Source of the DNA: Marisa cornuarietis
Taxonomy: Eukaryota; Mollusca; Gastropoda; Architaenioglossa; Ampullariidae
Direction of reading: 5' to 3'
Assembly: GCA_004794655.1 (NCBI GenBank)
Contig: SMMW01000046.1
Span: 904,001 to 968,000, forward strand
Length of the DNA stretch: 64,000 nt
The notes below the pieces were generated by a model. The model searched no databases. It saw nothing but the letters and a program-made list of their open reading frames with translations, and was not told the origin of the DNA. Positions 9,601-15,600 of this stretch are shown here, piece by piece. Numbering within the stretch: position 1 is the stretch's first letter; each line of letters starts with the position of its first letter. A program made the position numbers and the translations under genes.

Positions 9601-12600
9601 CTGGGTTACCAAAGCAGTTTGTGAAATATTGGGAGTTAAATAAGTACTTGAAACCATGCATATATGTGTGTGCATGGGTGTGCATGTGCCTCTGTGACAC
9701 TGGCTTACCAAAGCAGTTTATAAGATGCTAGGAGTTAAATAAGTATTTAATATATTCATATACATGTATGTGTGTGTGTGTGCGCACATGCCTGTGTGCG
9801 TCTATGTTTCCAGGTGAAGCTGTATCAGGAGAAGCGATCAGACCTGGAGGAGCAACAGCTTCACCTAAATGTGGGTCTGCAGAAAATTCGTGAGACTGTA
9901 CAGCAGGTGGAGGAACTTCAGAAATCACTGTCCATAAAGCGCATTGAACTGGAAGAAAAAAACAATGCTGCCAACCTCAAACTGAAACAGATGGTAAGTT
10001 CCTGTCTTCCCTCATTACAAACTGCATGCTGCATGTACATTTTATCTTCTTGCTATGAGCATGGGACAAGATAAAGTATGAAATAATAAATATATCATTG
10101 GATATAATCATTAAAAATTGGACTTAAAAAGTCCCGATTCAAGTATGAAATAGGTGTCTAATAAAGATGCTGTTGGATGCAGGTGAAAGACCAGCAGGAG
10201 GCAGAACGCAAGAAGGTGACCTCCCAGGAGATCCAGCAAGCACTCATTGAACAAACCAAAGTCATCAATGAGAAGCAGTCCAGTGTCATGGCGGACTTGG
10301 CCCAGGTGGAGCCTGCAGTCATTGAGGCACAGAATGGTAGGTTGCATTTTCTGTTGTGGCATTCACATTTGATTTCAAGGTATTATATCCGTAACTTGGC
10401 TTATAGCTCTTATTATAAAGGTCATACTTTTGTTAGCTAACAAACTTGACATACACGTTTAACTGCCACTTGCCACTTCAGAATAACCTTGTTGACTTTT
10501 GGAATATGTAATAAAAAGAATGCCTTAGATTGACTTTTTGAACAGGTATTAAAAAAAATAAGACATACACTTTTCAAGTGACTTCGTGGACATGTGCACA
10601 TTCCCGATATAGTCCTCTGATTTGTTTAGTTAATGAATCCCATGTTCTTTCTCCTTATGCTTGTATGCTGATATTTTGTGGATGGAGGTTCCTTGTCTGC
10701 TGTTTTCCTTGTCTTCCTTTGACAACTCCTTGACAGAGCAGAATGCCATCTTACCAACATAAATGCTTGTTTACCACAACAGCACACAATGCACTCTCTG
10801 CACACCCTCTTCAGAAATCACAATAGCAATCAAAGCAGCATTTCCCATCCACTTGCCAGTCCACTTTATTAGTGTCATGCATGATCTTAAGCAGATGTTT
10901 TCTTTACCTGATTATTATTAGAGAGGTGCAGTGTGCCACTAGGAAAGTCTTATGAGCATGTCTGTAAACTGTAGAAAAACAAGTCTCTAATGTGTTTTTC
11001 TTTCTCTTGAGAAATAGTATTGTCACTTTAAGCAGAGTGTGGCAAGCTGAATAATATTGGCATGTCTTGCGGTAGACAATCTCGGATGTGTTTTAATCAC
11101 TTGTTTAGTAGTTTGTTGTCTAATGAAGGATTGAAGTTCTGTAAGCTGCACAACTTACTTCCATTGCTGTTAGTTTTGACAGTTTTGGTCAGTATTAATT
11201 TCTTATTGATACTGACTTTTGTGTCTGGCTTATACATGTCAGTGCATAGCAGGAATGCCGTAACACAGGTCAACAGAAAAATTTATGAAGGAGAAGTTAA
11301 ATGTAGGAACTGCTAGGTTCTGCACAAGCTCAGATTTGCTGTGTACAGGAGGTAGTTATATGTGAGCATATAGCTGTAAGATGGGACTCACTTTATTTCG
11401 GATTATCTGTATATTGTCATGAGATGTATAATTGAAGGATTGTGAAGGAGAAATGCCAGTAGCCTTTAAATAGGTACAACAGGAGAGAACAAGACATAAC
11501 ACTACTTGATTCTTTTACACAAGTCATTCTTCATAGCTACCCACAAAACAGATCAGACTTGTAAGTCTGTGCCAGCATTTTTGCTCAAGCACTGTTACAT
11601 TGAGATAAATTGTGTCGTACTATGTTGTCAAATATTTCAGTATAAAATGTTCTGCATAAATGGAAATGACCTACATGGCTTTTCCATTTGGACTGCACAA
11701 AATTTGCTTAGATACAAAGGTGTCAGACGTGTAAGTTTTCTGAAGATGCATCCCTCCTCTCCCTTTTGTTTTTTTGGTGCAACTCTTTGGATACAAGTAA
11801 ACATTCAGTTTGGGGTCTAAAGAATTTTTTAAAGTTTTTATTTTACGTTATTATCAGACTGAGCTTTTGCATGAATCACTGCTTGTGTAAAAGCTTTTGT
11901 GCTTTATTTTTGCCTCAAATGTGCCCTGCCCTACCCATTGCTGCATTGCAAAGCTGTCAAATCGATCAAGAAACAGCACTTGGTGGAGGTAAAGTCACTG
12001 GCAAACCCCCCAGCTGCTGTCAAACTGGCAGTGGAGTCCATCTGTGTGCTTCTGGGGGAGGGAGAGCCTGACTGGAAACAATTGCGTGGAATCATCATGC
12101 GAGAGAACTTCATCTCCACCATCGTCAACTTCAAGACTGATGATATAACGTGAGTGGTTTCTGCAGGGCCTTCTTACCTCCAGTTTCCCTTTAGTCCACG
12201 CTGCCCATTTTTAAACCATTCAGTGTGATCTGTGTGTCTCCGTCTTATGAAATCTGCTGTGAAAATGCTTGGGCACATAAATGAGGTCTGTGTTTCCAGG
12301 TCTTATAGGACAGTGCATGTGATGACTGTCCTCACAGCTATTTCACAGCAGGTTGCATAATGTGTGTGCTTTTCCCTCCTGGATGCTGCTGCAGCACACA
12401 CCAACACAGATATTTTTGGAAAAAAAAACAAACAGAAAAATATGACAGGTAGGCAGGTTAAAACTCGACATAGGTGAGGAGTTGTGCAGTGGTGCTGATC
12501 GTGGTGTTGGCCTGGTGCAGCTGTGAAGTCTATAAAGAAGAAGGACCTTGTGGAGATACGATCCATGGGCAACCCCCCACCAGTGGTAAAGCTGGCCCTG

Positions 12601-15600
12601 GAGGCCATCTGTCTTCTGCTTGGGGAGAATGCCTCTGACTGGAAAGTTATCCGGGCGGTCATCATGAAAGACTCCTTCATTTCCAGCATTGTCTCCTATA
12701 AAACTGACGACATCACGTGAGTAGGCGCTGCAGGCCAACAGAGGCCCTGGACCTGGGTGTAGAGTGGTGGCTGCATGGATGTCATGCTTACAGTTCACTC
12801 TGCTTTTGTTCTTGTAAAACTCATCGGTCTCAGTTTATTATTTGAGATAACTGATACAACTACTGGAAGGGGTATATAGAAACGTGATGTGGAGCCTTCT
12901 ATTCACACTGCTTTTCTGTTTTTGTTGTAAACTTGTCATTGGCCTTCATTTAGGGTGTGTGCCTAATGAATAGTCACATGCACGTTAGAGAGTTGGCTGA
13001 TAGACTAATGGAAATGGTAGATAAGTGAGAGGTTGGGTTCAAATACTTCATCTCTGCAACACTACACATTTATGGACATAAATTGTTTTCAGTTGGTGTT
13101 ACATATGTGCAACTTTTTAATTTAGTTTTCAACATTCCTCAAATTGCACTACAAAAGCTACTCTGATAATGACCCAAGTTGGCAATGTTTAAAGGCCAAA
13201 CGTCCACTGTTGGGCAGGAAAGATCCACTGGAGGGAGGTGAGGCTACTGGTTTGGCAAAATAGAAGCAGTTAGTGAAGACCACTTGGAGAGCCAGACCAC
13301 TAGCTCCTCACCTCCCTCCCTGGGGTCAAATCATTCTTTCCCCCATACGGTAGAAGTTTTGCTTTTAATGCTTTTTGTGGGTAGAGGGAGTCTTTTTCTC
13401 CAGTGGCTCCTTGACATCTTAGGAGTAGAAGGCCAAAAGAGCTACGTGCCCTTCCGATAAATCAGCTGTTATTTTAGGGCATCTCCACGTTCAATTGCTC
13501 TTGACATGCAAGTGGAATAGAAGCAAAGACTCTTTGCTCGGAGCAAGTTAGCATTGGTGTCCATGGTGCCTCACCTCCTCTCACTAGCCTGCACCATTTT
13601 TCATGCATCGAACATTTCATAGTTCATTCAGTAGATTCAGATATGTGGTCTGGATTTAGGGCAATTATTATTTACTGTCATTATATGCAACCCATATGTT
13701 ATGACTTGAGCATGATGGTTGTGTCAGCATCTTCAGAATAAACCCTTAGATGTTTATTATCAACAGAATGCTATGTCTTATAGGAGGAAAATTGATCAGT
13801 TGTCTGACCTTTTCCCTTGTCCCGTGTTGAGATCTTTATCTTTTGTTGAATTTGTATGTGACCATTTTATGTTTGAGCATGATGGCTGTGCATATGTATT
13901 GGATTAAATAGTAGCTTTATTGAAATAAATGACATCTAACCAAATAAATTGCGTATCTTTAAAGTAGAAATGAAAGTGTCACAGAAACTTTGACATTGCT
14001 AAGTAATGTAAAGAACAGAATCTTGTTGTGATCTTCTTGGTTGATGATCTCACTGCTATGAACAAAGACTCCTTACAATGACAAATAAGTGAGATTTTAG
14101 CAATGAAGGATTTAGCTTCATGCTTTATTCCTCTTCATTTATGTGTATAACTGGTAGTGCCTGTAGATGTTTAAGGTATTATCTTCTCATGTTTGAATAT
14201 AATATGGTAATTTGTACAAATATTCATGCAAGGGATGACATTCGAAGCAAGATGAAGAGCAAATATCTGAACAATCCTGATTACAACTATGAGAAAGTCA
14301 ATCGTGCCAGCTTGGCATGTGGTCCTATGGTCAAGTGGGCCATAGCACAGGTGAGAGACATTTCTGCATTGATGTTTGACTGGATCCAGGCTGTTTACTG
14401 TGTAATCATACTTCTACTGCATTATTAAAGTGGAGCGATCAATGGTCACATGATGGCAGTAGTTGCTATCCGGGCCCAGTTTGTTGTAGTTTTACAGTAT
14501 TTAAGTTTTTAGTCAAGTTTTGACTTATGTTTATTCTAAAAGAAAAATTAATGTTCTGGGTATATGTTGTATTGAGATGGTAATCTGCTTATATAAATTT
14601 TGATTTATAGTTTGAATTTTGTTTAAATGTGAATGCTTACGAGCAGTAGTATACTAATATTCAGTTCTAAGAGCTTTTGGGGGAGGAATGGGATGAAAGG
14701 CATATGCAAGGATAAGAAATGAAACAAACTTGGTGTACATGCAGATTAACTATGCGGACATGCTGAAGCGTGTGGAGCCACTGCGCAACGAACTGCAGGA
14801 GCTGGAGACTCAGGCAGAAGAGAACCGTTTGAAGGGTGAGGAGGTCAACAAGCTCATCCAGGGGCTGGAGCAGTCCATCGCTAAGTACAAAGAAGAATAT
14901 GCCGTCCTCATCTCACAGGCACAGGCCATCAAGGCAGACCTGTCAGCCGTTGAGGCCAAGGTACAGTACTATCATGGGAATTCTATTTGTTGTCGTGACA
15001 ATAATAACATTAACAATAATTAGATTTGCTCCCTTCTGTCAAAGTGATGGTGGTTATTATGGAGGCTTTAAAAATGCAAAATAAAACCCCAAAGTATTTA
15101 AAAAAAAAATTGCAAATGTACTTTGTAAACAAAATGGTCAAGAAGAAAGTGTATGAAGAAGTTTATGAAGGAACAAAGGAAAGATGGAGGGAAGAAATGG
15201 TAGTCATGAAAGATGTTGATAGAGGGAATGTCTTTAATACCTTCCAGACAGTGTACAGAATGATACAGGCTTGAAATTCCAAAGGCTGGGACCTTAAAAT
15301 GAAAACAGGAGACATGTTAAAATATTTTTTTAATTAAGCAGATTTGTTCTTGCGATACCCCATTGCTGGTGGCACATCAGAGGATAATCTGTCCTCAAAA
15401 TACAGTACATTTTATGATTAAAAGCTGTCACAGTAAATTCTTCACTGAAAATAATATGCAATAATTTATGGGGTTTGCCATTTTTCCTTTAACAGGCAAT
15501 AGATTGCAAGGAAAGTAGCTCTATAACAAAATTGATTTAAGTTTTGAATGCAACCGTTCCTTCACTTATATGCGTGATTGTTCTTGAATTAACAAAAAAA

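What the first reader, a model, noticed from the sequence alone, without database searches (positions are those of the whole stretch)
11954..12716. Tandem, mutually exclusive exons swap the microtubule-binding face of cytoplasmic dynein
Seen: two adjacent exons of exactly 196 nt, both open, with the same phases (1 in, 2 out), proper acceptors and identical GTGAGT donors. They encode alternative versions of the same 66 residues with 42 identities. Using both or neither shifts the frame. Known: in dynein this segment is helices H1 to H3 of the microtubule-binding domain, and H1 and H3 contact tubulin; vertebrates have one version. Inferred: the animal makes two dynein-1 motors that differ only at the track interface, with changes such as QH to KD in H1 and RENF to KDSF in H3. 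That could tune affinity, stalk signalling or preference for tubulin isotypes. I know of no description of such a switch, though I cannot search.
Basis: partly seen in the sequence, partly recalled or inferred. Interest (0 to 1): 0.88.

Follow-up and report, generated by a model that had tools for sequence, protein, structure and literature searches.

The report
Alternative exons for dynein's microtubule-gripping domain
The gene for the main minus-end motor of animal cells carries two interchangeable versions of the exon that builds part of its microtubule-binding face, and similar spare copies turn up in clams and in fish, so some animals may make two dyneins that grip their tracks differently.

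Summary
Exons A (11954-12149) and B (12521-12716) are 196 nt each, phase 1 in and 2 out, with GTGAGT donors, and encode 66 residues with 42 identities. Either one joins 10336 to 14233 in frame; both or neither gives a frameshift and stop. The gene is cytoplasmic dynein-1 heavy chain. B is not visibly decaying: A/B similarity stops near the exon borders, dN/dS is about 0.2, and a B-type clade (25 of 122 tree rows) recurs elsewhere, including Mya arenaria; A-type occurs in Mizuhopecten. In-exon tubulin salt-bridge residues keep their charge in B, so B should bind microtubules. No transcript evidence was reachable, so the splicing switch is inferred. Whether vertebrate and molluscan copies share one origin is unresolved.

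The parts
10183..10336 (+). Upstream constitutive exon (end of stalk coiled coil 1), ends in phase 1 (…EAQN|)
   Evidence: matches DYNC1H1
10337..11953 (+). Intron before exon A, 1617 nt, GTAGGT…AAAG
11954..12149 (+). Exon A, 196 nt, the more human-like version of the microtubule-binding segment (51 of 66 residues as in human)
12150..12520 (+). Intron between A and B, 371 nt, GTGAGT…GCAG; long enough for A-to-B splicing, so no simple steric block
   Evidence: the steric argument is inference
12521..12716 (+). Exon B, 196 nt, alternative version (41 of 66 residues as in human, 42 of 66 as in A)
   Evidence: B-type relatives
12717..14232 (+). Intron after exon B, 1516 nt
14233..14350 (+). Downstream constitutive exon (rest of the microtubule-binding domain, …KWAIAQ)
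12161..12167 (+). CTGCAGG at intron positions +12 to +18 after exon A, shared with the region after exon B; role unknown
12728..12734 (+). CTGCAGG at intron positions +12 to +18 after exon B

Best explanation
An old tandem duplication of one coding exon in the cytoplasmic dynein-1 heavy chain gene left two functional, interchangeable exons. The spliceosome includes A or B. Because each is 196 nt (not a multiple of 3) between phase 1 and phase 2 borders, transcripts with both or neither are frameshifted and presumably lost to nonsense-mediated decay, so two full-length heavy chains result that differ only in about 66 residues of helices H1-H3 of the microtubule-binding domain. Both keep the charged residues that pair with tubulin, so both should bind microtubules; the differences (H1 QH to KD; H3 REN to KDS; the loop before H3) most likely tune affinity, off-rate, stalk signalling or tubulin preference by cell type or stage. 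Shown: exon anatomy, frame logic, identity of the gene, conservation of both types elsewhere. Inferred: actual splicing of B, regulation, functional difference.
For: Exact exon anatomy and frame logic. A/B changes concentrate at third codon positions (18/12/31; NG86 dN 0.25, dS 1.23). Bootstrap dN/dS median 0.20, 95% range 0 to 0.44, with 27 of 500 resamples at zero or without a usable dS. Introns around the copies are unrelated beyond 18 nt, so the duplication is old and B has nonetheless stayed open with both splice sites. 28 of the 241 listed proteins carry the B signature KKKDL, including P0078 from Mya arenaria; 25 KKKDL rows plus P0131 form one clade (96/98) in a 122-row tree. 11 of these 28 ORFs end just where a GT donor followed by AA, AG or GA would stop the frame (the donors themselves were not seen). 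A-type occurs in Mizuhopecten P0032, joined to the upstream stalk sequence. In 26 distinct B-type rows the in-exon salt-bridge positions keep their charge: K 26/26 at mouse 3299, E 26/26 at 3304, R/K 26/26 at 3306, K/R 26/26 at 3334, K 25/26 at 3342 (contacts from PMC7042235; the exception is the broken row P0182). A vertebrate parallel exists with the human-like copy first: P0121, with a 116-nt intron between copies by count.
Against: No RNA data: 0 of the 28 KKKDL proteins shows the upstream EAQ context of a spliced product, although the protein search cannot reach full-length heavy chains because of its length limit. No pairing between the introns stands out from 2-base-block shuffles (6 of 50 and 15 of 50 shuffles as strong or stronger), so no competing-RNA mechanism is visible. 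The 371-nt intron does not force exclusivity. One KKKDL row of 28 (P0182) looks broken inside the exon.
Confidence: 0.83

Rival explanations
1. B is an exon used only for unproductive splicing: inclusion of both exons lowers dynein level through nonsense-mediated decay, and no second motor is made.
For: Including both exons gives a premature stop; no spliced B protein was found (0 of 28).
Against: A poison exon needs no protein-level conservation, yet B keeps the frame, the tubulin-contact residues and a low dN/dS and is conserved as protein across several genomes.
Confidence: 0.08
2. B is a decaying relic of an exon duplication, no longer spliced.
For: No transcript evidence could be reached; one KKKDL row of 28 (P0182) is broken.
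Against: Open frame, intact AG and GTGAGT, excess of third-position changes, and a B clade in other genomes.
Confidence: 0.05
3. Origin: one duplication in a common ancestor of molluscs and vertebrates, kept in both and lost in lineages with a single copy, as against independent duplications of the same exon.
For: Same exon and same order (human-like copy first) in P0121 and P0002 and in the window. Four-group test slightly favours copy 1 with A and copy 2 with B (AU 0.80 against 0.20 and 0.20). Mouse position 3343 is E in A and vertebrate copy 1 (2 of 2 and 4 of 4 rows), D in B and vertebrate copy 2 (25 of 26 and 27 of 29).
Against: The 122-row tree gains 6.66 log-likelihood units when vertebrate copies 1 and 2 are held together (p-AU 0.659) and does not reject A with B (2.90 lower, p-AU 0.432). 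65 columns are too few. D at 3343 is also the commonest residue overall (116 of 145), so it is weak evidence. Which lineages lack the second copy was not tested here.
Confidence: 0.25

Closest known systems
Mutually exclusive exon pair in Schistosoma mansoni DHC1 (Pillmann et al. 2011, PMC3228551; section 9 read, other passages seen, figures not held)
   Same: Cytoplasmic dynein heavy chain, two homologous exons of identical length, split codons at both ends, called mutually exclusive
   Different: The text read gives no domain, length in nt or function; [quoted passage not shown] Whether it is the same exon could not be tested.
Second MTBD exon in fish dync1h1 (P0002 Coryphaenoides rupestris; P0121 and the cluster)
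   Same: Tandem second copy of the same exon, human-like copy first (P0002, P0121)
   Different: Second copy lacks the KKKDL signature (IKRQHL); intron between copies is 116 nt in P0121 (counted); origin relative to the molluscan pair unresolved. Among second-copy sequences only P0002 bears a species name.
Tandem homologous mutually exclusive exons in motor genes, e.g. arthropod muscle myosin heavy chain (PMC3228551 section 9; of PMC2257972 only the title and start of the abstract in a search listing)
   Same: Exon swap tunes a motor domain from a single gene
   Different: Myosin clusters tune the actin motor; here the swap is at the microtubule contact of dynein

Membership tests
Cytoplasmic dynein-1 heavy chain (DYNC1H1) | Best match to dynein-1 over AAA modules and stalk, not to axonemal dynein or dynein-2 | tested here: met
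   (best 60 of 84 sequences shown): mammalian-type DYNC1H1 1447-1452 bits, two other cytoplasmic dynein groups 1140 and 625, best axonemal chain 315, dynein-2 286; MTBD
Cytoplasmic dynein-1 heavy chain (DYNC1H1) | Microtubule-binding stalk domain (PF12777) with either exon | tested here: met
   58.8 bits with A, 60.6 with B, cut-off 24
Homologous mutually exclusive exons | Adjacent exons of equal length, same phases, homologous, proper splice sites | tested here: met
Homologous mutually exclusive exons | Both or neither destroys the frame | tested here: met
Homologous mutually exclusive exons | Transcripts hold exactly one of the two | not testable with these tools
   No RNA-seq; 0 of 28 B-type proteins in spliced context
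Homologous mutually exclusive exons | A mechanism for exclusivity (short intron, U2/U12 mismatch, competing intron pairing) | tested here: inconclusive
   Intron 371 nt with GT-AG borders; best intron duplexes matched or beaten by 6 of 50 and 15 of 50 shuffles. Frame loss is the only visible enforcement
S. mansoni DHC1 pair of Pillmann 2011 | Same exon of the microtubule-binding domain | not testable with these tools
   Domain not stated in the section read; figure and S. mansoni locus not held

The most novel reading that the evidence does not exclude
Cytoplasmic dynein-1 has an exon-encoded switch at its track interface that dates back to a common ancestor of vertebrates and molluscs, is still present in fish and molluscs, and was lost in mammals, so the dynein studied in mammals, which appears to be a single isoform, is a reduced state.
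Probability: 0.25. Interest if true: 0.87.

Novelty: new member of a known kind. Interest (0 to 1): 0.62.

Why it matters
[quoted passage not shown] If some animals swap this exon, they vary the same surface as normal biology: B carries K where human has R3344. That would give a natural set of tuned microtubule-binding domains and make it testable whether dynein is adapted to tubulin isotypes or cell types by splicing. Since a fish has the tandem exon too, laboratory fish could serve, if they share it (not checked).

Tried and rejected
Chance similarity: rejected, A/B is the only duplicated ORF pair besides its antisense mirrors among 1621 ORFs. Separate gene copy or assembly duplication: the exon-pair DNA gave one match in the own genome of 572 contigs; the protein-level search of the own genome for paralogues or retrocopies did not complete, so a diverged second gene or a processed copy is not excluded. 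Competing intron RNA structures: the best upstream-intron/middle-intron duplex (-40.4 kcal/mol) was slightly stronger than all of 8 shuffles (best -39.8), so I repeated the test with 50: 6 of 50 shuffles were as strong or stronger, and 15 of 50 for middle/downstream (-41.0); upstream/downstream (-37.5) was beaten by 3 of 6 shuffles. No signal, but a single genome is a weak test. Relatives in viral contigs (2 scans) and genome contigs (1 scan): none confirmed. One origin or several: not decided. Exon DNA of other species could not be fetched, so splice sites of relatives are inferred from where ORFs end. Naming the organism: not possible; a mollusc is inferred from the named relatives of the two types (Mya for B, Mizuhopecten for A). 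Literature: 10 searches, some with capped lists (20 of 44, 20 of 117, 40 of 176). Among the listed titles and abstract starts, none names this exon of the dynein microtubule-binding domain. DYNC1H1 does not occur in the main texts of PMC9741552 and PMC5740500, nor dynein in PMC3923563. Most subscription papers are not held.
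Full report
What is there. The window (G000:C322:904001-968000 of a 534-Mb assembly) holds, on the + strand, a large part of a cytoplasmic dynein-1 heavy chain gene. An 826-residue query made of exon-like ORF pieces from the window matches mammalian-type DYNC1H1 at 1447-1452 bits, against 315 for the best axonemal heavy chain and 286 for dynein-2 (best 60 of 84 sequences shown). 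Between the constitutive exons 10183-10336 and 14233-14350 lie exon A, 11954-12149, and exon B, 12521-12716.

Observation check. Each exon has 196 nt, an AG acceptor, the donor GTGAGT, phase 1 in and 2 out. Joined to the neighbours, each gives an open frame through the microtubule-binding domain. With both, the frame runs 38 codons to a stop; with neither, the reading is NGMTFEAR and a stop. A and B agree at 42 of 66 residues and 137 of 198 nt. A agrees with the DYNC1H1 segment of the PDB chains at 51 of 66, B at 41 of 66. Among 1621 stop-to-stop ORFs of the window compared with each other, A/B is the only same-strand pair apart from two antisense mirrors of the same exons, so the part of the gene in the window shows no second cluster of this kind at that sensitivity (ORFs of 25 residues or more, E 1e-4).

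Age and selection. DNA similarity starts at the AG and stops after the first 18 nt of the following intron (11952-12167 against 12519-12734, 69.9%); the remaining intron matches have E 2 or worse. Nucleotide changes fall 18, 12 and 31 on codon positions 1, 2 and 3; NG86 gives dN 0.25, dS 1.23. Resampling codons gives a median dN/dS of 0.20, 95% range 0 to 0.44, with 27 of 500 resamples at zero or without a usable dS. dS above 1 is near saturation, so these numbers show constraint but no date.

Relatives. Three protein searches gave 294 hits (120 listed), 581 hits among 7995 scored candidates (120 listed) and 49 hits (all listed), together 241 distinct listed proteins. 28 of these carry the B signature KKKDL. 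Most are single-exon ORFs on public contigs without a species name; P0078 is annotated in Mya arenaria as a separate 'DYHC1-like protein', apparently the lone B exon called as a gene. P0032, Mizuhopecten yessoensis, is A-type and joined to the upstream stalk sequence. From 151 distinct exon segments I dropped six ragged rows by hand (P0042, P0045, P0047, P0086, P0109, P0182) and those with more than six gaps; the 122-row tree has one B clade (25 KKKDL rows plus P0131, which keeps QH; 96/98 for the 26), one A clade of five (97/97) and one vertebrate copy-2 clade of 13 (100/99). The tool warns that 65 columns are few for so many rows. P0173, a KKKDL row with an insertion, never entered the tree. 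Because KKKDL was the selection criterion for B, its two positions are not independent evidence; R3342K and E3343D (25 of 26 rows each) were not selected on, but both residues are also common in other rows (K 75 and D 116 of 145).

Vertebrates. P0002 (Coryphaenoides rupestris, an annotated partial protein) and P0121 (one ORF on an unnamed contig whose first copy is nearly identical to human) each hold two copies in tandem, human-like first. In P0121 the intron between them is 116 nt by count, from the 39 residues between the copies. Querying with the second copy gave 49 hits, 37 of which carry its EETx(D/E)WKKIR signature. Only P0002 has a species name; the vertebrate label of the others is inferred from sequence. 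So 'vertebrates have one version' does not hold generally. For mouse and human, PMC3824068 says that DYNC1H1 appears to be a single isoform (passage seen). Further possible pairs: P0147 and P0191 share a contig length of 22,971, and P0084 and P0152 one of 2,601; P0191 falls in the A clade and P0147 elsewhere. Whether they share a contig could not be checked, and other short lengths coincide too (P0065 and P0150, 1,146; P0125 and P0143, 1,491), so the shorter match may be chance.

Function. From PMC7042235 (passages): H1, H3 and H6 bind tubulin; H1 K3117, E3122, R3124 and H3 R3152, R3159 form salt bridges, the last two being equated there with mouse 3334 and 3342. By the same offset the H1 residues are mouse 3299, 3304 and 3306 (my inference; mouse numbering taken as human minus 2, which is recalled; the paper prints R3334 where the sequence here has K). 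All five lie inside this exon. Across 26 B-type rows these positions are K 26, E 26, R/K 26, K/R 26, K 25 (the one exception is the broken row P0182). Hence B should fold and bind. Differences beside the contacts (mouse 3300-3301 QH to KD, 3342-3344 REN to KDS, loop 3329-3331) can plausibly tune binding. Human K3336N and R3344Q, in this exon, are reported to weaken binding (PMC3824068). Net charge of the segment is +1 for A and +2 for B, a small change. No structure was modelled.

How the choice may be enforced. The introns have GT-AG borders and the intron between A and B is 371 nt. Intron pairing: the best upstream/middle duplex beat all of 8 shuffles in a first run, but 6 of 50 shuffles matched or beat it in a second, and 15 of 50 for middle/downstream. 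The visible safeguard is the frame, presumably through nonsense-mediated decay. A shared CTGCAGG at +12 to +18 of both downstream introns is the longest shared intronic word seen and could be a splicing signal; untested.

One origin or several. With four groups alone, the tree pairing A with vertebrate copy 1 and B with copy 2 is best but not significantly so (AU 0.80, 0.20, 0.20). In the 122-row set, holding vertebrate copies 1 and 2 together raises the likelihood by 6.66 (p-AU 0.659), holding A and B together lowers it by 2.90 (p-AU 0.432), and holding A with vertebrate copy 1 lowers it by 7.10 (p-AU 0.39). Nothing is rejected. Either an ancient pair or repeated duplication of the same exon is possible; I lean to repeated or unresolved.

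Known or new. Tandem homologous mutually exclusive exons are a known kind (PMC9013439, passages). A pair in the cytoplasmic dynein heavy chain of Schistosoma mansoni was described in 2011 as identical in length, with split codons at both ends (PMC3228551, section 9 read); the domain is not given there. In ten literature searches (listed with their caps under Tried and rejected) I saw no listed title or abstract start that ties such a pair to the microtubule-binding domain, to molluscs or to fish. I therefore file it as a new member of a known kind, in a place where it matters.

Limits. No RNA evidence; no species name for the window; the own-genome protein search never ran; relatives were seen as proteins, not loci.

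Noticed in passing
window 55913-58970 (+): Trifunctional purine enzyme (GARS-AIRS-GART; Pfam GARS_A, GARS_C, AIRS, AIRS_C, Formyl_trans_N) in one long uninterrupted coding stretch, with a change of frame near 56.3 kb: looks like an intronless retrocopy, perhaps a pseudogene, or an assembly slip.
   Followed up: partly
window 46893-47306 (+): Exon-like ORF with an EF-hand_13 match, reminiscent of the PP2A regulatory subunit PPP2R3C (name recalled).
   Followed up: no
window 60418-62094 (+): ORFs that read like the end of a non-LTR retrotransposon (reverse transcriptase and RNase H-like, by eye; Pfam gave nothing for 60418-61065).
   Followed up: no
P0078 (Mya arenaria): The lone B-type exon is annotated as a separate 'DYHC1-like protein' of 134 aa, apparently an annotation artefact that hides the alternative exon.
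   Followed up: partly
P0147/P0191 and P0084/P0152: Two further couples of different exon versions share a contig length (22,971 and 2,601), which suggests paired copies in other animals; not verifiable here.
   Followed up: partly
window 12161-12167 and 12728-12734: CTGCAGG at the same distance after both donors, the longest shared intron word besides the donors.
   Followed up: no
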